A stretch of 64,000 nucleotides of DNA, taken from assembly GCF_002005465.1 (NCBI RefSeq), contig NZ_CP014691.1:2444501-2508500 (forward strand), given 5' to 3'. Below, one piece after another: positions 44-21,600 of this stretch. Source of the stretch: Neoasaia chiangmaiensis (lineage in GTDB: Bacteria; Pseudomonadota; Alphaproteobacteria; Acetobacterales; Acetobacteraceae). The notes beneath the pieces were generated by a model that saw nothing but the letters and a program-made list of their open reading frames with translations, searched no databases and had not been told where the DNA came from. Each line of letters opens with the position of its first letter. The stretch's first letter is position 1. The position numbers and the translations under genes are program-made.

Positions 44-3000
44 TCAGTGGAAGTTTCGTGACTTTACCACCAGATGTTCGGATCTGGAGTCCTGTAGTTC
101 TAAACCAATGTCTTGCAAGGAGCGGTTCCCGACATCCGCCAGCAATCCCGATAGGTCCCTGATCTCCTTCGCCACCAGATGCACGACCTCGCCCTCCCTC
201 TGCAGCATGCCTTTTACGGCCAGCATCTGTCCGCCCAATATCATCCGTCGGTTCGCATCGAATAGATCCGGCCAGATGATGACGTTCATGTTGGCCGTCT
301 CATCCTCCAGCGTCATGAACACCACGCCTTCGGCTGAGCCGGGGCGTTGCCGAACCAGCACTAGCCCAGCGACAGTCAGGCGCTTTCCATCCTTTGCCGC
401 CAGCGCCTGCCGACAGGTGACGATGCCCTGTGCCAGCAGATCACCCCGCAGAAAAGTCAGCGGATGATCCCGCAGGCTCAGGCCAAGCCGGTTGTAATCG
501 CGCACCACTTCCGCCCCGTCGTGCATGGGCTGCAGCAGCACATCCGGCTCCTCCGCTTCCCGCGTTACCTGGGCTGCCGCGAACAGCGGCAGCGGTTCGT
601 CCCGTAGCGCCTTGATTGCCCACTGCGCCTCGCGCCGTGGCAACCCGAGCGAAGGCCGGAACGCATCCGCTTCTGCCAGATGGGTCAGTGCTGTCGCCTT
701 CACGCCAACCCGACGCCACAGATCATCGATCGAGGTAAACGTGCGCGAGGTCCGTGCGGCAACAATTCGGGCCGCATCGTCATTGGCCAGCCCCTTGACC
801 AGACTCATACCCAGTCGCACGGCGAACATCCCGTCTGGTCTTTCCGGCCCTTCCAGTGTGCTGTCCCAGCGCGAGGCATTCACACAAACTGGCCGGATTT
901 CCACGCCATGTTCCCGCGCATCGCGAACCAGTTGTGCTGGTGCATAAAATCCCATTGGTTGACTGTTCAGAAGCGAGGCCAGAAACACATCCGGATGGGT
1001 GCATTTCATCCAGGACGACGAATAGGCCAGAATGGCGAAACTGGCGGCATGGCTCTCGGGAAATCCGTAAGACCCGAACCCTTCGAGCTGCTGATAGATC
1101 CGTTCTGCAAATTCTTCCGGGTAACCGTTGGCCCGCATGCCTTCGATCAGACGTCTCTGGAACTGTGAGACAGTGCCGGTATTTTTGAACGTCGCCATGG
1201 CCCGACGCAACTGATCGGCCTCAGCGGCAGTAAACCCCGCACAGATCATGGCGACCTGCATCGCCTGCTCCTGAAATAAGGGAATACCCAGTGTTTTCCT
1301 CAGAACCTTTTCCAATTCCCGGGTGGGATAGTTTTCCGGTTCGATCCCTTCGCGCCTTCGGAGATACGGATGCACCATATCGCCCTGAATTGGTCCGGGC
1401 CTTACGATCGCCACTTCAATGACGAGATCGTAGAACACACGCGGTTTGAGCCGTGGTAGCATGGACATCTGGGCGCGGGATTCAATCTGGAAGACGCCAA
1501 TGGTGTCAGCCTTCCTGATCATGGCGTAAGTGCGTGGATCCTCCGCCGGGATGGTCTGAAGGGTGAAGTGCTGATTCTTATGGTCCGCCAGCAGATCCAG
1601 CCCCTTTTTCATGCAAGTCAGCATGCCCATAGCGAGGATATCGACCTTCATGAATTTCAGGACGTCGATATCGTCCTTGTCCCACTCGATGATCTGGCGC
1701 TGCTCCATCGATGCAGGCTCAATGGGCACAAGCTCATCCAGCCGGTCATGCGTCAGCACAAATCCTCCGGGGTGCTGTGACAGGTGACGAGGTACACCAA
1801 TCAGGCAGCGGGCCAGATCAAGGGTCAGACGGATGCGCCGGTCGGACAAATCAATGCTGCTGTCAGTCAGGGCGTCATCGTCCAGCTTGCGCCCCCAGCC
1901 CTGAATCTGGCCCGACAGTGTGCGGATCAGGTCTTCCGGCAAGCCCATGACCTTGCCGACATCGCGTAAGGCCCCCTTGGCGCGATAGCGGATCACCACG
2001 GCTGTCAGGGCTGCCCGGTCACGCCCGTAATGCTCATAGACCCACTGGATGACCTGCTCACGGCGTGCGTGTTCAAAATCCACATCGATATCCGGCGGTT
2101 CGCCGCGCTCTTCAGAGACGAAGCGTTCGAACAGCAGGGAGTTTCGGGCCGGATCAATGGCGGTAATGCCCAGCACATAACAGACGGCACTATTGGCAGC
2201 CGATCCACGTCCCTGACAGAGAATGTCCTGGCTGCGAGCATAGCGGACGATGCTGTTCACCGTCAGAAAATAGGGCGCGTATTCCATGCGCCCGATCAGA
2301 CCCAGTTCATGGTGCAGACTTTTGCGAACCTCGCCCGGAGTCCCTTCGGGGTAGGTGCGGGCTGCGGCCTCCCATGTCAGGGTTTCCAGAGCCTGCTGGG
2401 GCGTCTGACCGGGCGCGGACACTTCATCGGGATACTGGTAGGCCAGATCATCGAGCGAGAAACGGCAGCGCTCCACGATATCCATGGTGCGGGCGACCGC
2501 TTCAGGGTAACGGCTGAACAGCCGGGCCATCTCCTGCGGTGGCTTGAGATAACGGTCGGCATGACGTTCGCGGACGAACCCGGCCTCGTCGATGGTCGTG
2601 TTGTGCCGGATGCAGGTGACGACATCCTGCAGGATACGCCGGTCATGGGTGTGGAACAGCACGTCATTGGTCACGACGGTTGGCACATGTGCCTGATGCG
2701 CCAGGTTGGCAAGATCATACAATCGCATCTGGTCATTGGGACGGCGTAGCAGGGTGAGCGCCATGTAGGCCCTGTCGGCAAAGATGTCCTTCAGCTTGCG
2801 CAGATGCAGCGCGCAGGCCTCGTCCGCCGTGTCCGGGATCATGACGACGATCAGGTCTTCACCCCAGGCGACCAGATCCTCCCAGAGCAGATGGCATTTT
2901 CCTTTCCCGGCACGGGCCTTGCCGAGGCTCAGCAGGCGGCAAAGACGGCCATAGGCGGCCCGGCCCGTAGGGTAGACCAGCACGGGAGGGAAATCCGCCA

Positions 3001-3220
3001 GATCGAGACGGCATCCCACAACAAGGCGGAGCCCGATCTCTTTTGCCGCGACATGGGCCTGCACCATCCCGGCCAGAGAGTTGCGGTCACAGATGCCCAG
3101 TGCCTCGATGCTAAGGGCCTTTGCCTGCGCAAACAGTTCGATCGGGGAAGACGCCCCGCGCAAAAACGAGAAATACGTCGTCACCTGCAGTTCGGCGTAA
3201 TGCGGTGCCGAGGTGCTCAT
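44..3220 (-). CDS. dnaE2: Error-prone DNA polymerase DnaE2 (ImuC)
   Basis: Second C-family replicative-type polymerase; in other bacteria it does damage-induced mutagenic translesion synthesis together with ImuA and ImuB. The 1058-aa protein has an N-terminal PHP domain (about residues 8-200), the catalytic aspartate motif PDIDVDF near residue 375 and a C-terminal OB-fold-like region around residues 950-1030. Length fits DnaE2, which is shorter than the housekeeping DnaE. The start ATG overlaps the imuB stop (ATGA), so it is the last gene of imuA-imuB-dnaE2. Active-site acidic residues look intact. Expression is probably LexA-controlled from the promoter upstream of imuA. Confidence 0.95.
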
Positions 3221-4740
3221 CCGAAAATCCCGTGCAGAAACCAGCCCTGCGAGCCGGTCTCGCCGTGCTCACCATCACCGGCACGGTAAAGCCAGAACCG
3301 CTCGCCGCTCGTGTCCTCCACCCGGAAGTAATCGCGGGCGATGGTCAGCTCGGCGTCATTTTTCCACCACTCGCCAAAGACCCGCTCAGGCCCGTCAGCG
3401 CATTTCACTTTCCGCCGCACGCCCCGCCAGATGAAGAACAAGGGCGGCTGGTCCGGCAGTTCCGCCATGGCCTGCACCGGCTCAGGTCGTGCCAGCAGGC
3501 GGGTGGGACGTGGCCAATGCTCCGGCCAGTCCTTTGTCTCTTCAGGTGCAAGGGCAGGCACACGGCAGAAAGAGCGTTCGGGCAGGTCGCTTTCCACTGG
3601 GGCAAAGCGATAGAGCGCCTGTGTACCGACACGGTTGGCCAGTGTGTCGATCAGGTCGGACACATCGGCTTCTTCTTCGGCGATGAGCGAGGAGACGGTC
3701 TGGCGCCGATCCATGGGCTCCGCCAGAGAGGCGATTAGCACCATGCGCTCGATGCCGAAGCCCGGATTGATCGTTTCGATTTTCTCGCACAGCAGCCGCG
3801 TCAGGCGCTTCACATCGCGTACCGGCATGGCGGTCGCCACGCGGATCGCCTCGGTGCGGTTGTCCACCCGATGCAGCAGCAGATCAAGACGGCGCACGCC
3901 CTGTCCGCGCTCGTCCAGTCCCTGGCAGAGCAGCGGCACCAGCTTGCCGATATATTTGGCGATGGTTTCGGCGGCCCCGATCGGCTCGGCAAAATTACGG
4001 CTGACCTCGACCGGATCCACCGGGCGGACTGGCATGATAGCTTCCCCCATACGCCCGAACGCCTGATCCAGCCTACGGGCGACATCCGGTCCGAAACGCA
4101 GCGCCAGCGGTGCACGTGGCATGGCGGCCAGTGGTCCGATGCGGGATACGCCCAGCGTGGGCAGACCCTCAATGATAGGTGAGGGCAGGCGGAGTGCTTC
4201 AACGGGCAGATCTGCCAGAGCAGAGGTCGTTTTATCTGAAGGGACAACCGCAATCGCTAACCGGCCATAGCGAGCCAGTGCATGGGCCGCCCCCCAGGTG
4301 TCCGCCACCACAGCTTTTGCCCGAAAACCTGCGCCCGCCATGCGATGAACCATGTCCTTGAGCATGGGAAGTTCACCGCCGTGCAGGTGATCCGCCCCCG
4401 TCGTGTCCAGAACCAGCCCGTCCGGTGCATCGACGGCCACGATGGGCGCGATCCGGTGCTGGAACCACAGCGCCAGCTTTTCCAGCCCCAGACGGTCTCC
4501 CTCGGGATCGGCGTCCATCAGCACCAGATCGGGATACAGCGCCTGGGCCTTGGCGATTGGTGTGCCGGGACGCAGTCCCAGCTTGCGGGCGGCCAGATCG
4601 ACCGACAGGACAACTCGTCGTCGTCCTTCACGCCCGGCCAGTGCGAGCGGCGTTTCAGGCGCGGGCGCGTCTGGTCCAAGTCGTTTCCTGATCCGGTCGG
4701 TCGGCCAGAGCGGCAGGTAAAGAGAGACGACCCTTGCCAT
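3217..4740 (-). CDS. imuB: ImuB, catalytically inactive Y-family polymerase-like mutasome adaptor
   Basis: Y-family DNA polymerase homologue (507 aa) that in known systems bridges DnaE2, ImuA and the beta sliding clamp rather than copying DNA. The usual catalytic acidic motifs are missing: the N-terminus reads [11 protein letters not shown] where active enzymes have the first Asp motif, and the SxDE-type motif is replaced near residue 100 ([10 protein letters not shown]). A candidate clamp-binding motif QPPLF lies near residue 429. I chose the ATG at 4740 because a GGAGG ribosome site lies about 7 nt upstream; a longer reading to 4785 is possible but lacks this. It overlaps imuA by 86 nt and dnaE2 by 4 nt. 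Confidence 0.93.
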
Positions 4741-5419
4741 CACAAGCCTCCACTTCAAAATCGGCACATTCGCCTGCGCGGGCACGGATCAGTTCCAGCA
4801 GCCAGCGAGAACGGCCTACACCGGGCACCGGCAACGGTAGGGAAGGCAGGACGGAGACCCGCCAGCGTGTCACACTGGCAGTCGGCTGGCCAAAATCCGC
4901 CGCATCCGTCTGTCGTCGCCAGCGGCGGATCGCGATGCCAAGCGAACCAGACGTTTCAGCCGCCAGTTGCAGGCGACGCGAGGCCGTCATGGACAGGCGG
5001 GATACTTCCGCGACAACAGCTCCGAGGCCGCCATGCCGCAGCCCTTCCTCGAAGCAGGCCAGCACATCGACTTCCGAACTGGCCTCGACATAGATCGTCC
5101 GCCGCGCAGAAAGCCCCACCTGTTTCAGGGAAGGGGCGAACACGTCCTGACGGGTGACGATCCAGAGCACCTTACCGCGCGTACGGGCGGCAATCCCGGC
5201 GCAGAACTGACCGGCGGCGGCACTGTGCAGAGCATCATTCCCGCCTCCTGCCACTTCATGCAACGCACCTAGCGCCAGACCGCCACCGGGCAGGCGACTG
5301 TCGATCTCGCGCACGCCAAAAGGCAGCACCGTGCGGCGTCGGTCGCAGTGCCCTTCGAGACGGCTGATCGCAGCCCGCAGCGTCTCCAGACCGGGTTTTT
5401 TCGCGGTTTCAGCAGTCAT
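4655..5419 (-). CDS. imuA: ImuA, RecA-like mutasome protein
   Basis: 254-aa RecA/SulA-like protein, first gene of the damage-induced mutasome operon. The segment around residues 30-60 (PFGVREIDSRLPGGGL, then ALHEVAG) is typical of ImuA, which is thought to regulate RecA and to recruit ImuB/DnaE2. The 3' end overlaps imuB by 86 nt in another frame, a strong sign of translational coupling. Upstream lies the divergent promoter with two GTTC-N7-GTTC boxes, so LexA repression is expected. Identity rests on the whole operon context as well as on the protein. Confidence 0.9.
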   Translation of the reverse strand: MTAETAKKPGLETLRAAISRLEGHCDRRRTVLPFGVREIDSRLPGGGLALGALHEVAGGGNDALHSAAAGQFCAGIAARTRGKVLWIVTRQDVFAPSLKQVGLSARRTIYVEASSEVDVLACFEEGLRHGGLGAVVAEVSRLSMTASRRLQLAAETSGSLGIAIRRWRRQTDAADFGQPTASVTRWRVSVLPSLPLPVPGVGRSRWLLELIRARAGECADFEVEACDGKGRLSLPAALADRPDQETTWTRRARA

Positions 5420-5464
5420 GTCACGGTTCTATGTCCCTTGTGCAGGTGCATTTCATGATTATAT

Positions 5465-5479
5465 GTTCCTGATTTGTTC
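5465..5479. promoter_or_regulatory. LexA (SOS) box, copy 1
   Basis: Perfect match to the alphaproteobacterial LexA operator GTTC-N7-GTTC (GTTC at 5465-5468, seven bases, GTTC at 5476-5479). It lies 46 bp upstream of the imuA start, in the gap between imuA (minus) and the helicase (plus). Confidence 0.8.
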
Positions 5480-5531
5480 TAATTATGCTACGCAAGTCAA
5501 TGCAAATTCGCTCCGTATCCGGCATGCTGGT

Positions 5532-5546
5532 GTTCGATGTCGGTTC
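5532..5546. promoter_or_regulatory. LexA (SOS) box, copy 2
   Basis: A second perfect GTTC-N7-GTTC element (5532-5535 and 5543-5546), 30 bp before the helicase start. Its position suggests it controls the helicase-yedK pair while copy 1 controls imuA-imuB-dnaE2. Confidence 0.75.
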
Positions 5547-5575
5547 GGTATCGTTGATGAAAGTGCGCTAAGGAA

Positions 5576-7678
5576 TTGAATCCAGAACCTTCTCCCGCTT
5601 CGGGCAGCGACGATTATCTGTCCCGTCTGAATGATGCGCAGCGGCAGGCCGTCACGCACGGGACCGGGGTCTCGCCGGGCAGGGCGGATTCATCCCCGCT
5701 GCTGGTCATCGCCGGCGCCGGTTCGGGCAAGACCAACACACTGGCGCACCGGGTCGCGCATCTGATCGCCTCGGGTGCCGATCCGCGCCGCATCCTGCTG
5801 CTGACCTTCTCGCGGCGGGCCAGTGTCGAGATGACGCGACGGGTAGAGCGGATCTGCAAAACGGCGCTCGGCGACAAGGCCGGTCCTCTGGCCGATGCGC
5901 TGGCCTGGGCCGGGACGTTTCATGCCATCGGCGCCCGGCTGCTGCGGGAGTATGCGCAGCAGATTGGCATGGACCCGGCCTTCTCGATCCATGATCGGGA
6001 GGATTCCGCCGATCTGATGAATCTGATCAGGCATGATCTGGGGTTTTCCAAAACCGAGAAGCGTTTTCCCGGCAAGGGCACGTGCCTTGCCATCTACTCC
6101 CGTGTGGTCAATTCCGGCGCACCGCTCGCCGACGTGTTGTTGAAGCATTATCCGTGGTGCGCGGGCTGGGACGCGCAGCTCAAACAGCTCTTTGCAGGTT
6201 ATGTTACGGCCAAGCAGGAACAGGGTGTGCTGGATTACGACGATCTGCTGCTGTGCTGGGCGCAGATGGTGAGCGATCCGGTGCTGGCCGCCGATATCGG
6301 CGGCAAATGGGATCATATGCTGGTCGACGAGTATCAGGACACCAACCGGCTGCAGGCGGAGATCCTGCTGGGCATGAAGCCCGACGGACGCGGACTGACG
6401 GTGGTGGGCGACGACGCGCAGAGCATATACGCTTTTCGGGCGGCGACCGTGCGCAACATCCTTGATTTCCCGGCGTCCTTCGATCCCCCGGCATGCGTCG
6501 TGACGCTGGACCGGAATTATCGCTCGACAAAGCCCATTCTGGATGCGGCCAACGCCGTCATTGGCGAAGCTGCCGAGCGGTTCACCAAGGATCTGTGGAC
6601 CGAGCGACAGTCCGACGAACTTCCCAGGCTCGTGACAATCTGGGACGACACCGCCCAGGCGAACTATATCGCGGATCGTGTGCTGGAAGAGCGGGAGGCC
6701 GGCACGCCGATGAAGCAGCAGGCGGTGTTGTTCCGGGCCTCGCACCATAGCAGCACGCTGGAGGTGGAACTGACAAGGCGCAACATCCCGTTCGTGAAGT
6801 TCGGCGGCCTGAAGTTTCTCGACAGCGCCCATGTGAAGGACGTGCTGGCTCTGCTGCGCTTTGCCCAGAACCCGCGCGACCGCATCGCGGGCTTCCGGGT
6901 CCTGCAGCTTCTGCCGGGCGTGGGGCCGACCTCAGCTCGGCGCGTGCTGGACACGATGGGTGAGAGTGCCCATCCCTTCGAGGCATTGAAGGATCTGAAA
7001 GCCCCACCGCGCAGTGGCGAGGCCTGGACGGGTTTCGTGAACCTGCTGACAGCCCTTGGCAGTCATCAGGTCGGCTGGCCGGGCGAGATCGCGGTTGTGC
7101 GGTACTGGTATGAGCCGCATCTGGAGCGGCTGCATGAGGACGCCTCCACCCGTCTGGCGGACCTGGTGCAACTGGAGCAGATCGCCGGCGGTTATCCCTC
7201 ACGTGAGAAATTCCTCACCGAACTGACACTCGACCCGCCGGATGCAACGTCCGATCAGGCTGGCGTGCCGTTGCTGGATGAGGATTATCTGATCCTCTCG
7301 ACGATCCATTCCGCCAAGGGGCAGGAATGGAAGAACGTGTTCGTGATGAACGCCGTCGACGGCTGCATTCCGTCCGATCTGGCTACCGGCGAGCAGGATG
7401 ACATCGAGGAGGAACGCCGGCTGCTCTATGTGGCTATGACACGGGCGAAGGACAGTCTCGATATCATGGTGCCGCAGCGTTTTTACGTGCATGGCCAGCA
7501 CAGCCGGGGCGACCGGCATGTCTATGCTTCACGGAGCCGCTTCATCGACCGCGATATGCTGCCCCTGTTTCAGTCTGTATCCTGGCCCGTTGTGAAGCCA
7601 GAGGAGCAGGCCCGGCAGGAGGCGGTGCAGTCCGTGCGGATCGACATGGCCGCCCGTCTGCGCGGCATGTGGTCGTAA
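5576..7678 (+). CDS. UvrD/Rep-family superfamily 1 DNA helicase
   Basis: ATP-dependent 3'-5' type SF1A helicase of 700 aa. Visible motifs in order: Walker A GAGSGKT (about residue 46), Walker B-type VDEYQDT (about 249), GDDAQSIYAFR (about 277), NYRST, STIHSAKGQEW (about 575) and VAMTRAKD (about 619). The likely start is TTG at 5576: an in-frame TGA lies at 5558 and no ATG follows it. It shares a divergent SOS promoter with imuA and is followed after 12 bp by yedK, so both are probably damage-inducible. It may be a dedicated repair helicase rather than the housekeeping UvrD; sequence alone does not decide. Confidence 0.93.
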   Translation: MNPEPSPASGSDDYLSRLNDAQRQAVTHGTGVSPGRADSSPLLVIAGAGSGKTNTLAHRVAHLIASGADPRRILLLTFSRRASVEMTRRVERICKTALGDKAGPLADALAWAGTFHAIGARLLREYAQQIGMDPAFSIHDREDSADLMNLIRHDLGFSKTEKRFPGKGTCLAIYSRVVNSGAPLADVLLKHYPWCAGWDAQLKQLFAGYVTAKQEQGVLDYDDLLLCWAQMVSDPVLAADIGGKWDHMLVDEYQDTNRLQAEILLGMKPDGRGLTVVGDDAQSIYAFRAATVRNILDFPASFDPPACVVTLDRNYRSTKPILDAANAVIGEAAERFTKDLWTERQSDELPRLVTIWDDTAQANYIADRVLEEREAGTPMKQQAVLFRASHHSSTLEVELTRRNIPFVKFGGLKFLDSAHVKDVLALLRFAQNPRDRIAGFRVLQLLPGVGPTSARRVLDTMGESAHPFEALKDLKAPPRSGEAWTGFVNLLTALGSHQVGWPGEIAVVRYWYEPHLERLHEDASTRLADLVQLEQIAGGYPSREKFLTELTLDPPDATSDQAGVPLLDEDYLILSTIHSAKGQEWKNVFVMNAVDGCIPSDLATGEQDDIEEERRLLYVAMTRAKDSLDIMVPQRFYVHGQHSRGDRHVYASRSRFIDRDMLPLFQSVSWPVVKPEEQARQEAVQSVRIDMAARLRGMWS

Positions 7679-7690
7679 GGGAGCAGACAG

Positions 7691-8338
7691 ATGTGCAATC
7701 TCTATTCCATGACTTCCAACCCACAGGCGATCAAGGACGTTGCAAAAGTCCTCGAGGATCGCACGGGGAATCTCCAGCCATTGCCCGAGATTTACCCGAA
7801 CACGATGGCGCCGATTGTGCGGAATGGCACGAACGGTCGTGAACTGGTCATGGGCCGCTGGGGCATGCCGACACCGCCGGGATACCTGAAAGGCCATAAG
7901 GTGGATCGTGGTGTCACCAACATCCGCAATCCGACCTCGACATGGTGGAAGCGATGGGAAGGTGTGGCACATCGCTGTCTGGTGCCGCTGACGGCGTTCT
8001 CGGAGCCGGAGCGTCTGCCTGACGGGAAATTGCAGCCTGTGTGGTTTGCCCGCAGCGACGGTGAGCAGGTGGCTTTCTTTGCCGGTATCTGGTGCCGATG
8101 GACATCCGTGCGGAAACTGGCTGATGGAGAGACAACGGATGACCTGTTTGGATTTCTGACCACCGAGGCGAACCGGGAAGTTGGAGCCATCTATCCGAAA
8201 GCCATGCCGGTTATTCTGACGCAGCCAGATGAACTGGATATATGGATGAATGCGCCTGTCACCGAGGCTCTATGTCTTCAGAAGCCTTTGTCGGATGCCA
8301 TGCTTGCTTGTGTCGATTCTCCGCAGCCTTTGAAATGA
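7691..8338 (+). CDS. yedK: YedK/HMCES-family abasic-site-processing protein (SRAP)
   Basis: 215-aa SOS-response-associated peptidase (SRAP) family protein, which in E. coli and humans forms a protective thiazolidine cross-link with abasic sites in single-stranded DNA through Cys2. Cys2 (MCNLYS) and the catalytic Glu at position 105 (TAFSEPER) are present. The conserved His of the usual IH-P/D-K/R-MPVIL motif is Tyr here (residue 168, codon TAT at 8192-8194, one base from CAT). A GGGAG ribosome site lies between the helicase stop and this ATG, 12 bp apart, so the two genes form an operon under the SOS promoter. Confidence 0.92.
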   Translation: MCNLYSMTSNPQAIKDVAKVLEDRTGNLQPLPEIYPNTMAPIVRNGTNGRELVMGRWGMPTPPGYLKGHKVDRGVTNIRNPTSTWWKRWEGVAHRCLVPLTAFSEPERLPDGKLQPVWFARSDGEQVAFFAGIWCRWTSVRKLADGETTDDLFGFLTTEANREVGAIYPKAMPVILTQPDELDIWMNAPVTEALCLQKPLSDAMLACVDSPQPLK

Positions 8339-10602: not shown

Positions 10603-11661
10603 TCATACAAAAATGTATCTTTTGTAGAGATTTTGTAGAGATTTTCGAATGTTTTTGGCGTCTTCTTCTCTATTCTCTTGCACGGCATCCAGCATTTCTT
10701 TTTCTTTCCTGGTAATACGCGTGCAGAGCTCGGTTAGATCAGCGCAAAATGCCTCGTCATGAACACTTGGCTCCCGGTTTTCGTTTTCAGATGGTGCTCC
10801 CTTTTCGTTGGTAGAGGAGGGCGTAATGCCGTTTTTCTCATTGAACTGAATCTGTAACGTTCGACGTGCCTCTGTTTCGCTTATCGCCCCGCGCATTGCC
10901 GGTGTTATTGTATCGGCATACAAAATGGCTGTTCCGTTAGGATTACGCGCAACCCTTCCAATCATCTGTATTAACGCGTCTGTTGACCGGAGAAAGCCCG
11001 CCCGATCTGCATCCAGAATTGCGATGAGCGAGGCTTCCGGAATATCGAGTCCTTCTCTAAGAAGGCTGATTCCAATGAGAACGTCGAATTCACCAGCCCG
11101 CAAACCGTCGATGATTTCAGTACGCTCTTCTGTTTTGATATCTGAATGAAGATAGCTGGCTCGAACCCCCTTGCTTTCCAAAAGAGCGTGTAGATCCTCA
11201 GCGGCCGCCTTCGTCAGGGTTGTAACCAGTACGCGCTCTTTCCGATGCTTACGCACTTCAATTTCATCGCAGAGGTTATCAATTGCTCCAGCAGACGGCC
11301 GCAATTCAATTACGGGGTCAAGCAGTCCCGTCGGCCGCACAACCTGAAGCGCAACATGTTCTTTGGAAACTTTCAGCTCATAAGCACCAGGGGTCGCAGA
11401 GACGAAAATGGTCTGTGGTTTTACCTCTTCAAACTGCTTGAAATTTAATGGGTGATTGTCTTTTGAAGACGGTAGGCGAAAGCCATAATCGATCAGCGTG
11501 TCTTTACGGCTTTGATCTCCACGATACATCGCTGAGATTTGCGGGATCATGACGTGAGACTCATCCACGAACAGCAGCCCGTCCTTAGGAAGATAATCAA
11601 GTAGCGTAATGGGAGGAAGAGCTGGGTCACGTCCGTTCAGGTAAGAACTGTAGTTTTCCAT
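10603..11661 (-). pseudogene. uvrB: UvrB C-terminal fragment (N-terminal ATPase half missing)
   Basis: This 352-aa open frame matches the C-terminal half of excinuclease subunit UvrB: FVDESHV with the following [12 protein letters not shown], then [28 protein letters not shown] and a GRVARN motif, ending in a divergent UVR-like helix pair. UvrB-like coding continues upstream of the ATG (GYCSG just before [10 protein letters not shown]) to about 11725, where an in-frame stop sits. The Walker A half and the DNA-binding hairpin region are absent, so nucleotide-excision function is not expected. Base composition is lower in G+C than in the flanking core genes. Most likely a captured or deleted paralogue rather than the chromosomal uvrB. 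Confidence 0.85.
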
Positions 11662-13021: not shown

Positions 13022-13084
13022 ACAAAACAAGTCGAGTGTTTCCTGCACACCGTGCTGTCACTTTGGATATACTGGAGAAGAGTA

Positions 13085-14788
13085 ATGAAAACTAATAGAC
13101 ACAATCTTCGGATTGCTCTTTATGGTCGTTTTTCGACATCCCGCCAAAATGCAGCGTCCTCGGCCGACCAACTCCATGCGGGCGAGAAATATGCCACGCA
13201 ACACGGTTGGACGGTGGTGGCACGTTTTACGGACGATGCAATATCCGGAGCGTACGAGCATGGCCGAGCAGGTCTGCAAGAGTTAAAACAGCAAGCCATG
13301 CTAGGACAATTTGATGTTGTAGTTGTCGAATCTGTTGATCGCCTTGGCCGGAATGTTTCTGAAGTCACTGCTCTGTATCGGCGGTTGAAATTTCATGGGA
13401 TTGAAGTTCATACATACACCTCTGGAAAACAGACAGACCTTGTGATCGCGATCATGAGTAGTGTTGCGGAAGCGCAGCTGGAGGAAATTGCCCATAAGAC
13501 ACGTCGAGGGGCCAAAGCCAACATCTTGAAAAAACGGAGTGCAGGCGGTCGAGCGTATGGGTATGTGTCTGATCCAAAACTTACTGCTGACGGAAAGCTC
13601 GACAAAGGACATCAGAAGATATGTCCGGCTGAAGCGAAAATCGTGCGTAGAATTTTTGATGAATATGCTTTCGGTAAAAGCCCAATAGAGATAGCGAGAA
13701 AATTGAATCTGGAAGGTATTCCGGGTCCGCGCCGCCCTCGTAAAAAAGGGGAGACTCAAGTTCCTGGATGCTCGCAGTGGCAAGTAAGTACGATTTTGGG
13801 TCATGCGTCGCGCGGCACAGGAATAATTCATAACGAGCTGTATCGCGGATGGAGGGTATGGAACCAGCGCATGTATTTGAAGAATCCAGACACGGGTAAG
13901 CGTGTGGCGCGTCAGAATCCTGAAGAAGATATTGAACGCATCGAGGATCAGGATTTGCGCCTCGTCACCGAGGAGCAGTGGAATGCGATTCGAAAGCGGG
14001 AGGCGGTGATCCGGGCGAACATGAAGAAACGTGCATGTGGGCAGGAGCATAATTTTCGCGACGCACGGCGGCCCACGTCATTTTTGAGTGGAATCATTAA
14101 ATGCGCTGCATGTGGAGGTAATGTCGGACTTGTTCTGCGCGATCGCTGGGGATGTCTGGGGCACCACCGGGGCACAAACTGCACGAACAATCGTACGAAA
14201 AAACGGGATGTCGTGGAGCAACGTATCCTGTCGGGGCTAGCCGGCCCTCTTGTGACAGGCGAATCAATAGAGATTGCTTTGCAGGCGTACAATGAAGAAT
14301 GTCAGGCGCTCTATGCGCAATGGCTTCGGCAATCCGATGCTGGCCGTGAAAAACTTGCGTCGATTGATGCTCAAATAAATAACATAATGAAAGCTATTGA
14401 ATTTGCACCGGACGTTTCTGTGCTCGCCAACCGGCTCACCGAGCTTTCAAAAGAGCGGAAGGCGTTAGCCGAGGCGATAAAGCCCGTGCCTGCACCAATG
14501 CCCAACTTGCAGCGTGACTTTTCGGCGCTCTTTCATGAGCGCGTGAAAAATCTGGGTGCTGTTATCGGGGATCCGAATCATGGCCGCGAGGCTTCCGATA
14601 AGCTACGCAGCCTGATTCAGTCCGTTGAATTCCGACCCGGACAAGCGCGAGGAGAAGTCGGTTTGACGTTGGTAGGGGATATGGCTGGTATTCTGGCGCT
14701 GGCGGCAGGTAATGATAATCTTGAAGTTACGACCGAAGCGGTTGTATGCCCCCGCAACCAGAAACAAGTCCTTGATTGGACAAGATAA
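13085..14788 (+). CDS. Large serine recombinase (integrase/resolvase family)
   Basis: 567-aa site-specific recombinase. The N-terminal resolvase domain has the catalytic serine at about residue 17 (YGRFSTSRQN) and SVDRLGRN near residue 80. A recombinase domain follows (residues about 170-330). A zinc-ribbon with paired cysteines (CAACGG, later C-x7-C) lies at about 340-375, and a coiled-coil region after it, as in phage and ICE integrases. The ATG at 13085 has GGAG 7 nt upstream; 13052 is a weaker alternative. It ends directly at a rho-independent terminator. Lower G+C than the core genes. Probably the enzyme that moved the 8.3-15.6 kb island or part of it. Confidence 0.92.
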   Translation: MKTNRHNLRIALYGRFSTSRQNAASSADQLHAGEKYATQHGWTVVARFTDDAISGAYEHGRAGLQELKQQAMLGQFDVVVVESVDRLGRNVSEVTALYRRLKFHGIEVHTYTSGKQTDLVIAIMSSVAEAQLEEIAHKTRRGAKANILKKRSAGGRAYGYVSDPKLTADGKLDKGHQKICPAEAKIVRRIFDEYAFGKSPIEIARKLNLEGIPGPRRPRKKGETQVPGCSQWQVSTILGHASRGTGIIHNELYRGWRVWNQRMYLKNPDTGKRVARQNPEEDIERIEDQDLRLVTEEQWNAIRKREAVIRANMKKRACGQEHNFRDARRPTSFLSGIIKCAACGGNVGLVLRDRWGCLGHHRGTNCTNNRTKKRDVVEQRILSGLAGPLVTGESIEIALQAYNEECQALYAQWLRQSDAGREKLASIDAQINNIMKAIEFAPDVSVLANRLTELSKERKALAEAIKPVPAPMPNLQRDFSALFHERVKNLGAVIGDPNHGREASDKLRSLIQSVEFRPGQARGEVGLTLVGDMAGILALAAGNDNLEVTTEAVVCPRNQKQVLDWTR

Positions 14789-15418: not shown

Positions 15419-15615
15419 GCCTATGGAACGCGGCTCGTTCCAACGCGTTATAAAAGACTCAGCAATAAATTATTTCGATTTTCGAAGCGAATTTCATCAG
15501 TCTATAAAATATTTTTTTTAAAATATTAACTTAATGAGAAGCTAAAAAACGAACAAATAAATAATCTTCTGAATCAGAGGTGTATTTACTTAAAATACAA
15601 CATGGACGTCGAAAA
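15419..15615. other. AT-rich leader upstream of the cyclic glucan synthase
   Basis: Sequence from about 15450 is strikingly AT-rich with long A and T runs. It probably carries the promoter of the following gene. No specific operator could be identified. Confidence 0.4.
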
Positions 15616-18600
15616 ATGGACAAAAGCGCTTCATTACCTCCGATGGCGGGTCGTGCGTTTCGACGTTCATGGGTGTCGCAAATTTTCAGACAGGCCCCGC
15701 ACCTGGACTGGCAGAATGACTCCACTTCGGTCAGAAGTGAAATTTTCGGCGTAGAGCGTTTGGAGGCCCATGCGCGGACCCTTGCGCTCGCTCAGGCTCT
15801 CGCTCCTCACACTGTTGGTCGTCATCATCCTCTATCAAAGCGGCTTAAAGAAAATGGGACTTTTCTTCGCTCGGCCGACGTGGAAATTTCAGATGCAATA
15901 CTGGCAGGGCGATCTCAAACGCCCGCAGCCCAGTGGTTGGTAGACAACTACGCGCTAATCGATATGCAGATCCGTGAAACAATTTTGGATCTGCCAGCAC
16001 GTTATTACGCACGCCTCCCCAAGCTGGCCGGCGGACCTTTTGCCGGATTGCCGCGGGTTTTCGGCGTTGCGTGGGCATATGTGGCCCATACAGACAGTCG
16101 TATCCAGACAGAAATTCTCTATGATTATCTGGAGGCCTACCAGAGCGTCGTTCCGCTCATGATTAGAGAACTCTGGGCTGTTCCGATTACCCTGCGCATC
16201 GTCTTGATCGAGAATCTGCGTCGAATTGTCGTGGCAATCATGCGGAGCAATGCCAATCGGCAAGACGCCGATCATCTGGCCGAAAGGCTCGATGCATGTC
16301 GTAAGACGGCACTCGGTTCCATGCCCGCAATTCTCGCCTCGGTCGATCCGAGCAGCCTGACGCCTGCGTTTGTCGCGCAATTTGCCCGTCGTTCTCGAGG
16401 ATTGGATCCCGAGAAGGATCCGGCGCTTCTTTGGCTCGAGCAGCGTTGTGCAGACCGCGGCATGACCATCGATGACGCTGTGCGCGAAGATTTGCACGAG
16501 CAGGGCGCTTTTACCGCCACGATTCGCAACATCATCACGAGCCTTAAATTTATCGCCAGCTTCGACTGGGCAGAAGCTTTTGACCGGGTTTGCCTCATCA
16601 ACCGGATTTTCGCTGATTATGCGAGCTTCACGCAGGCTGATTTCGCAAGTCGCGACCTCTACCACAAAGCCATTGAGGAACTTGCATACAATAGCGAATA
16701 CAGCGAAATGGCCGTTGCGGAACGGGCGCTCACGATGGCGCGTGACGCCAACGCAAGCGACCCATCCGATATGCGTCGAGGTGATCCTGGCTATTATCTC
16801 ATTATGTCGGGACGCCTCAGCCTGGAGGCAGCGATCGGGTTTCGCCCTTCGTTGCCACGCCTGCTGGCACGCCGTTTCTGTGAGCGTGGGATTGCGTCTT
16901 ATAGTCTTGTCGTCAGCTTTCTGACCCTGTTTTTTCTGGCTTTTCCACTCTGGTTCACGAACTTGCCCAGGGATGGCTGGGTCGTGGCTGTGCTGGCCGC
17001 CATTCCGGTCTCAGAAGCGGCGGTGGCTTCGGCAAACCGGTTGGCGCTCAGGGCAATCCGCGCGACAACGTTGCCGGGGATGGAGTTTCTAAGTGGTATC
17101 CCACTAGATCTGCGTACAATGGTGGTCGTGCCCGCATTATTGACGACGCAGCAGACTGTCGACAGCCTGCTTGCACGCCTTGAGATACATTATCTCGCCA
17201 CCCGAGATAAGGCCGTCTATTTCGCACTCCTAACCGATTGGATCGATCACGATACGGCCCATGCGCAGGATGATGAGTCTTTGCTATCGCGCGCGCAGGA
17301 GGGAATGGACAAACTCAATCGCAAATATGGGGCCACACCCGGCGACACGCGCTTCTACCTGCTGCATCGGCAGCGCGTGTGGTCCGAGAGCGAACAGGTT
17401 TGGATGGGATGGGAGCGCAAACGCGGCAAGCTACATGAACTCAATCGACTTCTGCGGGGAGCAAACGATACGACCTTCCTGACTCCGTCTCACGAACTGC
17501 CTCATGACGTCCGATATGTTGTGACGCTCGATGCCGATACGCGCCTGCCGTTGGATACAATCCGCCGTCTCGTGGGTAAAATGGCCCATCCGCTCAATTC
17601 CCCCATCTACGATCCGGTTTCGGGCCGAGTGCTTGAGGGTTATGCCATTTTGCAGCCTCGGATAACGCCATCCTTGCCCGTGGGTCACCAGAGTACGTTG
17701 TTCGAGCGTATTTTTGCCAGCACCAGCGGCATCGATGCCTATTCGGCCGCCGTGTCTGATCTGTATCAGGATATGTTCGGCGAAGGCTCTTATGCTGGAA
17801 AAGGTATCTATAACATAGATGCCTTTGAAGCGGCTCTCTCCCAGCGTGTGCCGGATTCCACACTGCTTAGCCATGATCTCTTTGAGGGGATATTTGCGCG
17901 CGCCGGATTGGTGACTGATGTGGAGGTGGTCGAAGAATTTCCCACAGATTATCTTGTCGCCGCCCAGAGACTGCACCGCTGGACCCGAGGGGACTGGCAA
18001 CTTCTCCCGTGGCTAACGTCTGGTGTGACCGGCCGCACTTTATCGGCGCGCGAGCGCTTCTCCGGCATCGCACGTTGGAAAATGCTGGATAACCTGCGTC
18101 GTACGCTCTGTGCACCCCTGCTGTTGCTGGCTCTGGCCGTGTGCTGGCTTCTGCCTTTTCACACAGCGCTTGTATGGACCGTCTTTCTTTTATTCGCGAT
18201 GGGTATTCCGGCATTTCTGCCCGTGCTGCCGGCACTCGTCCCGCGACGCGAATGGATCACCTGGCACAGCTATCTGAGCGTTATTGATTCGGCGGCATCC
18301 GAGGCCGCGGTTACGATATTCCTCAACATTACATTTTTGGCGCACCATGCCTTTCTCATGGCCGACGCCATATCGCGCACACTGATACGCGTTTTCGTCA
18401 CACGTCGGCATATGCTTCAATGGGTGCCCGCCGCTCAGCTCGTCGCTCAGAAGCATGCAGGGGTTTCCGATTATTATGCCCGGATGCTTCCTGCACCGTT
18501 TCTGTCCGGCTGCCTGACTTTGGCGGTGGCTCTCTGGGCACCGTGGAGCCTGTTCCTGACGGTTCCCCTGGCAGCTCTCTGGGCGCTTTCGCCAGCCGTT

Positions 18601-21600
18601 GCGATGTGGGCCAGTCGTACTCCGGCCATCGCGGCTCGCTCTCGGCCGTCCCGCACCGATATTCGGATGCTTCGTATGACGGCAAGGCGCACATGGCGGT
18701 ATTTCGAGACGTTTACCACCTCAGATGACCATATGCTTCCTCCCGATAATTTTCAGGAGGATCCGGCGCCCGTGCTAGCCAGGCGCACATCGCCGACCAA
18801 TATCGGGCTTTACCTGCTCTGCACGATCAGCGCGCGGGATTTTGGCTGGACTGGATTGATCGATACCGTCTCTCGACTGGAAGCGACCTTTGCAACACTC
18901 GACAAACTGCCGCGATATCGCGGTCATTTCTACAATTGGTATGCAACGAACGATCTTACGCCGCTGGCACCGATCTATGTTTCGAGCGTCGATAGCGGCA
19001 ACCTTGCAGGACATCTGATCGCGTTGGCCAGTGCCTGCCAGTCCTGGTCGGAAACGAGACCGGAGACGAGATCATGGTCCGACGGCATGGTCGACACGAT
19101 CAACATTGCTGTGACGGATCTCACACTCCACATGGGCACTCGACGGGCCAATACGACCGCGGAACGTCAGCTTCTTCGACGTCTGACCGGGCTGAAAAAT
19201 GCGATTTTAGGGGCACCGGCCGAACCGTCCGCAGCGGTGCTGACCGAACTGCACCGCCAGACGTCGCAGATAGTGGGGCATGTTGAGCAGATGGAGGCGG
19301 TTACCGCTACAAACAACAAGGAAGAGCAAGCCGATCGTCTGTTCTGGACCTCCGCACTGCTTCGGACGCTGGAAAGTCACCTGCTTGATCTTGATGATGC
19401 GCTCTATCCAGCACTCGCGTCCCGCCTGGCATCAATTGCCGATAGGGCAAGGACGTTGGCGCTGGAGATGGATTTCCGCTTTCTCTGCAACACTTCGCGT
19501 AAGCTCCTTTCCATCGGCTATCAGGTCGCTGAAGAAAAGCAGGACGCCAGTTGTTATGACCTGCTGGCTTCTGAAGCACGCCTCGGCGTATTTTTCGCCA
19601 TCGCCAAAGGTGATATGGCCGCGCATGACTGGTTTCGGCTGGGGCGTTCGCTGACCTCAGTCGGCAACGGCGCGGCACTGGTTTCCTGGTCAGGATCCAT
19701 GTTCGAATACCTCATGCCCTCGCTCGTCATGAGAGCGCCGATGGGCAGTCTGATGGAGCAAACCAATATCCTGATCGTGCAGCGGCAGATGGCTTACGGT
19801 CAGTTTCGCAACATTCCGTGGGGGATCTCTGAATCTGCCTATAATGCACGCGATATCGACTATACTTATCAATATTCGAATTTCGGCGTCCCGGGCCTTG
19901 GACTTAAACGAGGACTTGGTCTTGATACGGTCGTTGCCCCTTACGCGACTTTGCTGGCGGCTATGGTCGATCCCCAGAAAGCGGTGGCCAATTTATCCGT
20001 TCTGGATAGGATAGGTGCCCTCGGCCGCTATGGATTCCATGAAGCCCTGGATTACACGCCTGATCGTGTCCCTAATCCTGGCGATGTCGTCATCGTTCGT
20101 GCCTATATGGCGCATCATCAAGGCATGTCGATCCTAGCCGTGGCCGATACGGTTTTGAACGGTATCATGCGTAGCCGCTTCCATAATGATCCGCTCATCG
20201 CATCGGCCGAAATACTGTTGCAGGAGCGCGCACCGCATACCGGCGCAGTTGCCAGGCCGCTGCCGTCCGAGGATGATACCAAGACTGGCGTTCACGCTGT
20301 CAGCGCAATATCCGGTCGCTATTTGACCCGTTCGGACACGGCTGAACCCACAACGCATCTACTCTCCAATGGGCGTTACACGGTTATGCTGACGGCGGCG
20401 GGATCTGGTTACAGTCGCTGGAATGGTCAGGCCGTCACACGTTGGCGGGAAGATGCGACCTGCGATAATTACGGCACCTACTTTTATATAAAAAATCGCA
20501 AAACAGGTAATGTCTGGTCCGCCTGCGCGCAGCCTTTGGGCAGGAAGCCAGACGATTACGCCGTCGGCTTTCATGAAGATCGGGCCGAGTTCTCCCGGCG
20601 GGACGACCGCTTGACCACAACGGTGGAAATACGCGTTTCCACCGAAGAGGATGCGGAGGTGCGACAGATTTCGATATTGAACAATAGCGGAGAGACTGTC
20701 GAAATCGACATTACTTCCTACGCCGAATTGGCACTTCTGGCACAGAATGCCGACCTTGCGCATCCGGCTTTTACCAAACTCTTTGTCCAGACCGAATATC
20801 TGCCCGGTCTCCGTGCCCTGATTGCAACGCGTCGACGGCGGGCGCCCGAAGAGCCGGAAATCTGGGTGGCGCATCTTGCTGCGAATGCGACGGAAGTAGA
20901 GATTGAAACCGACCGCGCTCAGTTTGTTGGACGCAACCAGGATGTGCGCCGGCCGTCGGCCATAAGGGAGACGAGACCACTCTCCGGCACAACCGGCACG
21001 GTGCTCGATCCTGCTTTTTCCATACGGGTGCCGATTTCCATCCGGCCGGGAAATATAGCCCGTATCGCCTTCTGGACGATGGCGGCTCCCAGTCGTTCGG
21101 CCCTGCTGGCTATGATCGATACCCATAGGGATCAAGCCGCTTTTGAGCGTGTCCGGACTTTGGCCTGGACACAGGCGCAGGTGCAATTGCGGCATCTCGA
21201 CATCGCGCCGGCCACGGCAGATCTTTTCCAGAAGCTGGCAGGGCATATTCTATTCGCGGGCCCAGCCATGCGTGCGTCTTCGGCCATTATCGCCAAAGGC
21301 GCCGGTGCCCAGCCTCTGCTTTGGGAACAAGGAATATCGGGCGATCTTCCCCTTCTCGTGCTGCGCATAAAGTATGACGTGAATGCGGATGTCGTGCGTA
21401 CTCTCCTGCTGGCCCATGAATATTTGCGGCTCAAGCAACTGGCGGTAGATTTTGTCATTCTTAACGAACATCCGCCTTCCTATCTTCAGGAGTTGCAGAC
21501 ATCACTCGACCAGATCGTGCATGCGACGTCGCGTGGTAGCAGCGAGGTAGGCTCGATACAAATACTACGTGCCGATCTGCTTAGTCCGGCGACACGAAAT

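What the first reader, a model, noticed from the sequence alone, without database searches (positions are those of the whole stretch)
5420..8338. Two LexA boxes drive a divergent mutasome / helicase-YedK damage locus
The 156-bp gap between imuA and the UvrD-family helicase holds two perfect GTTC-N7-GTTC sites, one near each start. This places an SF1 helicase and an abasic-site cross-linking protein under the same SOS switch as imuA-imuB-dnaE2. A joint function (unwinding plus shielding of abasic single-stranded DNA during DnaE2 synthesis) would be new.
Basis: partly seen in the sequence, partly recalled or inferred. Interest (0 to 1): 0.6.

Follow-up and report, generated by a model that had tools for sequence, protein, structure and literature searches.

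The report
Mobile SOS mutagenesis and helicase cassette
Next to a known DNA-damage mutation machine, apparently sharing one damage switch with it, sits a dedicated DNA-unwinding enzyme plus an often-decaying abasic-site protein; the pairing recurs, often on plasmids, in many alphaproteobacteria, and although its parts are known I found no description of the whole.

Summary
Genes and 156-bp gap are as described, but the two boxes are unequal. Box 1 (5465-5479) is an excellent LexA site: rank 1 in the window with a matrix from 27 other imuA boxes, exact in 28 of 28 aligned loci. Box 2 (5532-5546) ranks 86 and is exact in 1 of 28, the window; most likely chance. So one shared operator.

SOS control of the helicase is still well supported: 41 of 41 loci with helicase divergent from imuA have an exact box; of 26 without divergent imuA, 17 have a LexA-like site scoring 8 bits or more (267 control segments: at most 5.5). 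56 Bradyrhizobium-type loci have none.

The helicase is a rare UvrD/PcrA-like subfamily, often on plasmids, linked to or parted from imuA at least 8 times on one partly unresolved tree. SRAP (YedK family) and DinB are optional partners. SRAP looks weakest: interrupted in five relatives (drafts), and its catalytic His is Tyr in the window.

The joint function is untested. SRAP beside imuAB-dnaE2 was published in 2013 (PMC3765255); I found no paper on this helicase cassette.

The parts
44..3220 (-). dnaE2 (imuC), error-prone DNA polymerase
   Evidence: NCBIfam NF004225 error-prone DNA polymerase 1387 bits, cut-off 939; the only such match of the genome, the second match is a 30% DnaE-like protein
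3217..4785 (-). imuB, Y-family-like mutasome subunit with DUF6504 C-terminus
   Evidence: Pfam IMS, IMS_C, DUF6504
4655..5419 (-). imuA
   Evidence: NCBIfam ImuA_translesion NF033429 E=2.2e-18 but 66.8 bits, below its cut-off of 150, and no Pfam family; order of genes and about 90-96% identity to the imuA of most acetic-acid-bacterial loci
5465..5479 (+). box 1, the one credible LexA operator, shared by both divergent transcripts
   Evidence: 35.9 bits, rank 1 of the window; exact in 28 of 28 aligned loci
5532..5546 (+). box 2, an exact GTTC-N7-GTTC string that is most likely a chance match
   Evidence: -4.4 bits, rank 86; exact in 1 of 28 loci
5576..7678 (+). UvrD/PcrA-like SF1 helicase of a distinct subfamily
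   Evidence: Pfam UvrD-helicase and UvrD_C; about 35% to housekeeping UvrD/PcrA, mostly 56-96% inside the subfamily with one 46% outlier; one clade apart from eight housekeeping rows
7691..8338 (+). SRAP (YedK/HMCES-like) protein, 12 bp after the helicase
   Evidence: Pfam SRAP E=1.7e-23; nearest solved structure 2AEG, AGR_pAT_140
8192..8194 (+). SRAP codon 168, TAT (Tyr) at the catalytic-His position
   Evidence: His in 23 of 24 cassette-type SRAPs, Tyr only in the window; the column aligns with a His of 2AEG and of human HMCES

Best explanation
This is a copy of a mobile SOS lesion-tolerance cassette of alphaproteobacteria: imuA-imuB-dnaE2 on one side and a dedicated UvrD/PcrA-like helicase (with optional SRAP and, elsewhere, DinB) on the other, both repressed by LexA through one operator (box 1). 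After damage, RecA-driven LexA cleavage would release both transcripts together. The helicase is the constant partner. Most likely it prepares or clears single-stranded substrate for DnaE2, by displacing strands or RecA/SSB at gaps; SRAP would cap abasic sites in that single-stranded DNA. SHOWN by sequence: gene identities, one conserved operator, recurrent linkage, LexA-like sites at many helicases without divergent imuA, purifying selection on the helicase. INFERRED: LexA binding, induction, the helicase's substrate, and any physical or functional link to the mutasome.
For: Box 1 conserved and top-scoring. In this genome an exact box lies before lexA (12.5 bits) and a near-match beside recA (22.4 bits). 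Of the 30 best-scoring imuA loci of a class-wide search, 29 hold an exact box. 41 of 41 divergent loci have an exact box; of 26 helicase loci without divergent imuA 17 score 8 bits or more and 11 have an exact box; 267 control segments inside helicase genes reach at most 5.5. Divergent arrangement in Acetobacter, Komagataeibacter, Gluconobacter, Gluconacetobacter, Methylocapsa, Methylocella, Ancylobacter, Rhizobium, Shinella, Chelativorans, Nitratireductor, Roseibium and Acidiphilium. SF1 motif patterns present in 94 to 101 of 101 full-length members. dN/dS of the helicase 0.05-0.12, like imuA, imuB and dnaE2 (0.04-0.12). 152 plasmid records hold the subfamily at E 1e-100, 88 of them typed conjugative.
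Against: No LexA-binding or expression data. The sigma-70 consensus scan found no promoter for either direction in 5380-5640. The pairing is not obligatory: only 2 of the 30 best imuA loci have this helicase divergent within 1.5 kb (some loci end at contig edges), and of 27 plasmid regions fetched with the helicase 12 have divergent imuA, an overestimate if anything because the first six came from a search with the whole locus. 56 Bradyrhizobium-type loci, and L152 which groups with them, have neither box nor partners in the fetched stretch, so the helicase can work outside SOS. 9 of the 26 score under 8 bits; four of these have imu genes nearby in another arrangement. Many of the 41 loci are close relatives, so 41 of 41 is not 41 independent events.
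Confidence: 0.68

Rival explanations
1. Box 1 is the operator of imuA only; helicase and SRAP are bystanders of a mobile island that happen to start on the other side.
For: Box 1 is 46 bp from imuA and 111 bp from the helicase start; 27 of the 30 best imuA loci have an exact box and no helicase in the fetched stretch. In L041 the imuABC half (bins mostly 61-84% to the window) and the helicase-SRAP half (mostly 81-94%) have different histories.
Against: 17 of 26 helicases without divergent imuA carry LexA-like sites of 8 bits or more; counting only the 22 with no imu gene detected, 17 of 22. Linkage changes at least 8 times on the tree, yet all 41 divergent loci keep an exact box.
Confidence: 0.15
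2. Both boxes are functional and act as separate operators.
For: Two exact strings within 67 bp; the genome-wide density (117 in 3.41 Mb) predicts about 0.005 per 156 bp. A helicase copy elsewhere (L156) does have two exact boxes.
Against: Box 2 scores -4.4 bits, rank 86, and is exact only in the window.
Confidence: 0.06
3. The cassette is decaying cargo: a mobile SOS module passing through acetic acid bacteria, with SRAP and sometimes the helicase losing function.
For: SRAP reading frame interrupted in L033 (at a contig end), L037, L041, L042 and L045, and not found in L116, where the next annotated gene is an IS5 transposase; window SRAP Tyr168; SRAP dN/dS 0.07-0.22. Helicase incomplete or interrupted in G059, G078 and G022.
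Against: In the window all five frames are open, and helicase, imuA, imuB and dnaE2 are under strong purifying selection. The interrupted frames are in draft assemblies and may partly be sequencing errors.
Confidence: 0.11

Closest known systems
LexA-regulated imuA-imuB-dnaE2 (imuABC) mutagenesis cassette, including plasmid-borne copies (PMC4151985, abstract and passages)
   Same: Same three genes, LexA box upstream of imuA, plasmid spread in alpha- and betaproteobacteria
   Different: Here the box is shared with a divergent UvrD-like helicase and SRAP; the main text of that paper has 0 occurrences of helicase, YedK and dinB
SRAP-containing SOS operons (PMC3765255, passages and section 5)
   Same: SRAP genes beside ImuB/ImuA/DnaE2 or DinB; also SRAP with a superfamily-I helicase in operons that may carry LexA and UmuCD
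UvrD/PcrA (DNA helicase II)
   Same: SF1 motifs and about 35% identity over some 630 residues
   Different: Distinct clade, scores far below the PcrA and UvrD equivalog cut-offs (362 of 911 and 308 of 1144 bits), beside a housekeeping-like copy in the same genome
E. coli YedK / human HMCES
   Same: SRAP domain with Cys2, Asn and Glu at the catalytic positions
   Different: Nearest solved relative is 2AEG; the catalytic His is Tyr168 in the window

Membership tests
LexA-regulated imuABC cassette | imuA, imuB and dnaE2 adjacent and co-directional | tested here: met
   the ImuA model hit is below its curated cut-off, but gene order and homologues agree
LexA-regulated imuABC cassette | Alphaproteobacterial LexA box upstream of imuA | tested here: met
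   box 1:
LexA-regulated imuABC cassette | LexA binding and damage induction | not testable with these tools
   no experiment available
SRAP/YedK abasic-site cross-linker | SRAP domain with N-terminal Cys2 | tested here: met
SRAP/YedK abasic-site cross-linker | Catalytic Asn and Glu (YedK residues 75 and 105) | tested here: met
   aligned columns kept: N77 nearly invariant, E105 invariant in A2
SRAP/YedK abasic-site cross-linker | Catalytic His (YedK His160) | tested here: not met
   Tyr168 in the window, His in 23 of 24 cassette-type SRAPs. In YedK, H160A and H160Q slow cross-linking about 10-fold (PMC9436759, passages), so reduced rather than absent activity is possible; I therefore do not file the window protein as an active cross-linker
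UvrD/PcrA housekeeping helicase | Equivalog score cut-off | tested here: not met
   pcrA 362 of 911, uvrD 308 of 1144 bits
UvrD/PcrA-like SF1 helicases | SF1 motifs I to VI | tested here: met
   motif patterns in 94 to 101 of 101 members

The most novel reading that the evidence does not exclude
Probability: 0.27. Interest if true: 0.72.

Novelty: new variant of a known kind. Interest (0 to 1): 0.47.

Why it matters
DnaE2 mutagenesis is a route of damage-induced mutation in many bacteria, and how single-stranded substrate reaches DnaE2 is not settled (my own knowledge). In non-replicating Caulobacter the gaps come from nucleotide excision repair (PMC8102061, abstract). A helicase that seems to share the mutasome's switch, is conserved, and occurs on plasmids, many typed conjugative, is a concrete, deletable candidate. 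If it acts with DnaE2, some plasmids carry a more complete mutation-and-tolerance kit than imuABC alone.

Tried and rejected
Two-box model: rejected for box 2. Beta-clamp motif in the helicase tail (MLPLF in acetic acid bacteria): LF is mostly kept but the rest varies (LVYLF in Bradyrhizobium), so no claim (first 46 distinct rows seen). AlphaFold model of the window SRAP from 14 close relatives: mean pLDDT 37, useless, not searched further. Sigma-70 scan of the gap: nothing found. Anti-phage reading of the helicase: PADLOC GajB and RTasHel hits were taken as general UvrD similarity; their partner genes were not looked for. Literature for a described helicase-SRAP-imuABC cassette: none seen in the listings of full-text searches; the library lacks most subscription journals, and one LexA-regulon paper that I looked for (10.1093/nar/gkh996) is not held. 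Two Dinoroseobacter papers (PMC9426580, PMC6473078; passages) gave nothing on the helicase.

Rows dropped and choices: one search dropped L157, L164 and L166 (no 5' end of the helicase). One search dropped L119, L167, L168 and L175 (best aligned piece too short) and left out Bradyrhizobium-type loci L064-L110; it is a quick tree with 33 of 76 inner branches under 80 support, so the change counts may be inflated by tree error. The matrix used 27 sites: of the 30 loci it left out the window, L200 (no box) and L193 (same box as L190); one search also left out L179. One search returned the best 80 of 129 loci. The 30 imuA loci are the best-scoring ones, not a random draw from the 164 of 385 genomes with a match. 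The 27 plasmid regions were chosen by hand, the first six from a search with the whole locus, the rest for variety of genus. L152 (G477), which groups with Bradyrhizobium, was counted among the 26. One search missed the SRAP annotated in L121, a distant one, so SRAP counts are lower bounds.

Full report
WHAT IS THERE. The gap between imuA and the helicase is 156 bp and holds the only two exact GTTC-N7-GTTC strings of the window. The genome has one LexA-type protein by Pfam, with an exact box before its gene, and a near-match beside recA, so this is a plausible LexA motif for the organism. It has one DnaE2 and two SRAP genes.

ONE BOX, NOT TWO. I built a weight matrix from 27 imuA boxes of other alphaproteobacteria, taken from the 30 best-scoring imuA loci of a class-wide search. 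Box 1 (5465-5479) scores 35.9 bits, first of the whole window; the next best place scores 7.7. Box 2 (5532-5546) scores -4.4 and ranks 86th. In an alignment of 28 loci of the acetic-acid-bacterial group box 1 is exact in 28 and box 2 in 1, the window itself. The bare string is expected about twice per 64 kb by chance. Box 2 is most likely a chance string; I cannot exclude a weak private site.

IS THE HELICASE UNDER SOS CONTROL? A box beside imuA could belong to imuA alone, so I looked at helicases elsewhere. Among 67 helicase loci outside the Bradyrhizobium-type set, 41 have imuA divergent and all 41 have an exact box between (lowest score 15.2). Four of those nine have imu genes nearby in another arrangement (L153, L163, L172, L210); among the 22 with no imu gene detected, 17 reach 8. 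Inside helicase genes, 267 control segments reached at most 5.5 bits. The 56 Bradyrhizobium-type loci reach at most 4.7 and show no imu, SRAP or dinB match in the fetched stretch. Loci are related to each other, so these are not independent counts.

A MOBILE, MODULAR CASSETTE. The subfamily is rare and patchy: by score, 10 of 120 family genomes and 9 of 385 class genomes (one of the nine only 46% identical) carry it, against near-universal UvrD/PcrA-type matches at about 35% identity. It forms one clade apart from eight housekeeping rows (support 100; the separating branch is long and some members have long branches). It is found in 152 plasmid records, 88 typed conjugative; the window's own copy lies in the single 3.4-Mb contig of the genome. 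Identity of 93-96% to loci L031-L049 of Acetobacter, Komagataeibacter and Gluconobacter (L055: 85%) suggests transfer between genera (inference). On the helicase tree the imuA linkage changes at least 8 times, the box (8-bit threshold) at least 6, SRAP at least 9; 33 of 76 inner branches are weakly supported, so these counts may be inflated, but well-supported groups do mix linked and unlinked copies (for example L117 with L212 and L173). In Gluconobacter potus (L041) the imuABC half is mostly 61-84% identical to the window while the helicase-SRAP half is mostly 81-94% (250-bp bins; L031, as comparison, shows no such step): the halves seem to have been exchanged near the divergent promoter. 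In 12 divergent cassettes outside the Acetobacter/Komagataeibacter/Gluconobacter/Gluconacetobacter group, dinB is detected in 10 and SRAP in 7 (8 with the one annotated in L121), at least one of them in 11. Among the 30 best imuA loci only 2, the window and G364, have the helicase within 1.5 kb; some loci end at contig edges. Of 27 plasmid regions with the helicase, chosen by hand, 12 have divergent imuA.

SRAP IS THE WEAK PART. SRAP is detected in 27 of 41 divergent loci, but of these L033 (at a contig end), L037, L041, L042 and L045 are interrupted; they are drafts, so sequencing errors are possible. In A. pasteurianus 386B no SRAP was found and the next annotated gene is an IS5 transposase. 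dN/dS against eight relatives is 0.07-0.22 for SRAP and 0.05-0.12 for the helicase. In the window, Cys2, Asn and Glu of the SRAP active site are kept, but the His is Tyr168; 23 of 24 cassette-type SRAPs in the alignment have His, and the column aligns with a His of 2AEG and of human HMCES (that this is HMCES His210 is recalled). YedK H160A and H160Q cross-link about ten times more slowly (PMC9436759, passages). Abasic shielding by this particular protein may thus be slow.

MECHANISM. Best reading: LexA on box 1 represses both directions; damage releases both; the helicase makes or clears single-stranded DNA on which DnaE2 works, SRAP caps abasic sites there, and DinB, where present, offers another bypass. 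In non-replicating Caulobacter DnaE2 fills gaps made by nucleotide excision repair (PMC8102061, abstract), which fits a UvrD-like partner; that paper's main text does not mention UvrD. Shared control is supported by comparison; the rest is inference. No promoter consensus was found and no usable structure was obtained.

WHAT IS KNOWN. Plasmid imuABC under LexA is established (PMC4151985, abstract and passages). SRAP next to ImuA/ImuB/DnaE2 or DinB, and SRAP with a RecD-related superfamily-I helicase in operons that may include LexA and UmuCD, were described in 2013 (PMC3765255, passages and section 5). A 2026 polymerase survey links SRAP-like proteins to UmuC-like polymerases in the passages seen (PMC12926913). 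I saw no paper on this UvrD-like helicase cassette in the listings of searches. Hence: new variant of a known kind.

Noticed in passing
window 10603-11661 (-): C-terminal part of a UvrB-like gene (UvrB profile positions 279-657 of 658); a full-length UvrB lies elsewhere in the genome at G000:C1:839498-841453.
   Followed up: partly
window 13052-14788 (+): Large serine recombinase (resolvase, recombinase and zinc-ribbon domains), consistent with a mobile island beside the cassette.
   Followed up: no
L221:6560-8302 (+) and L221:8641-10173 (-), just left of the window: Reverse transcriptase matching PADLOC RT-Toprim_I-C (717 bits) and a DUF3732 protein matching LmuB (295 bits): candidate defence genes about 2 to 5.5 kb from dnaE2.
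   Followed up: partly
G000:C1:1466276-1466830 (L111): The genome's second SRAP reads Thr where Cys2 is expected and lacks the catalytic His in the alignment; its start codon was not checked. With Tyr168 in the cassette copy, neither SRAP of this genome shows the full catalytic set.
   Followed up: partly
window 15580-24168 (+): 2862-aa open frame with glycosyl hydrolase 94, glucoamylase-like and glycosyltransferase domains, resembling cyclic beta-glucan synthase (that name is recalled).
   Followed up: no
L167 (G059), L168 (G078), L166 (G022): Helicase copies in the same family that are interrupted or only partly matched, suggesting cassette decay.
   Followed up: partly
L156, about -51 and -133 before the helicase: A helicase copy without imuA nearby that has two exact GTTC-N7-GTTC boxes; the better one scores 25.7 bits, a better candidate for two-box control than the window.
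   Followed up: no
L118 3992-4719 (Methylocapsa plasmid): imuA matches in three pieces and is not annotated there, as if interrupted.
   Followed up: no
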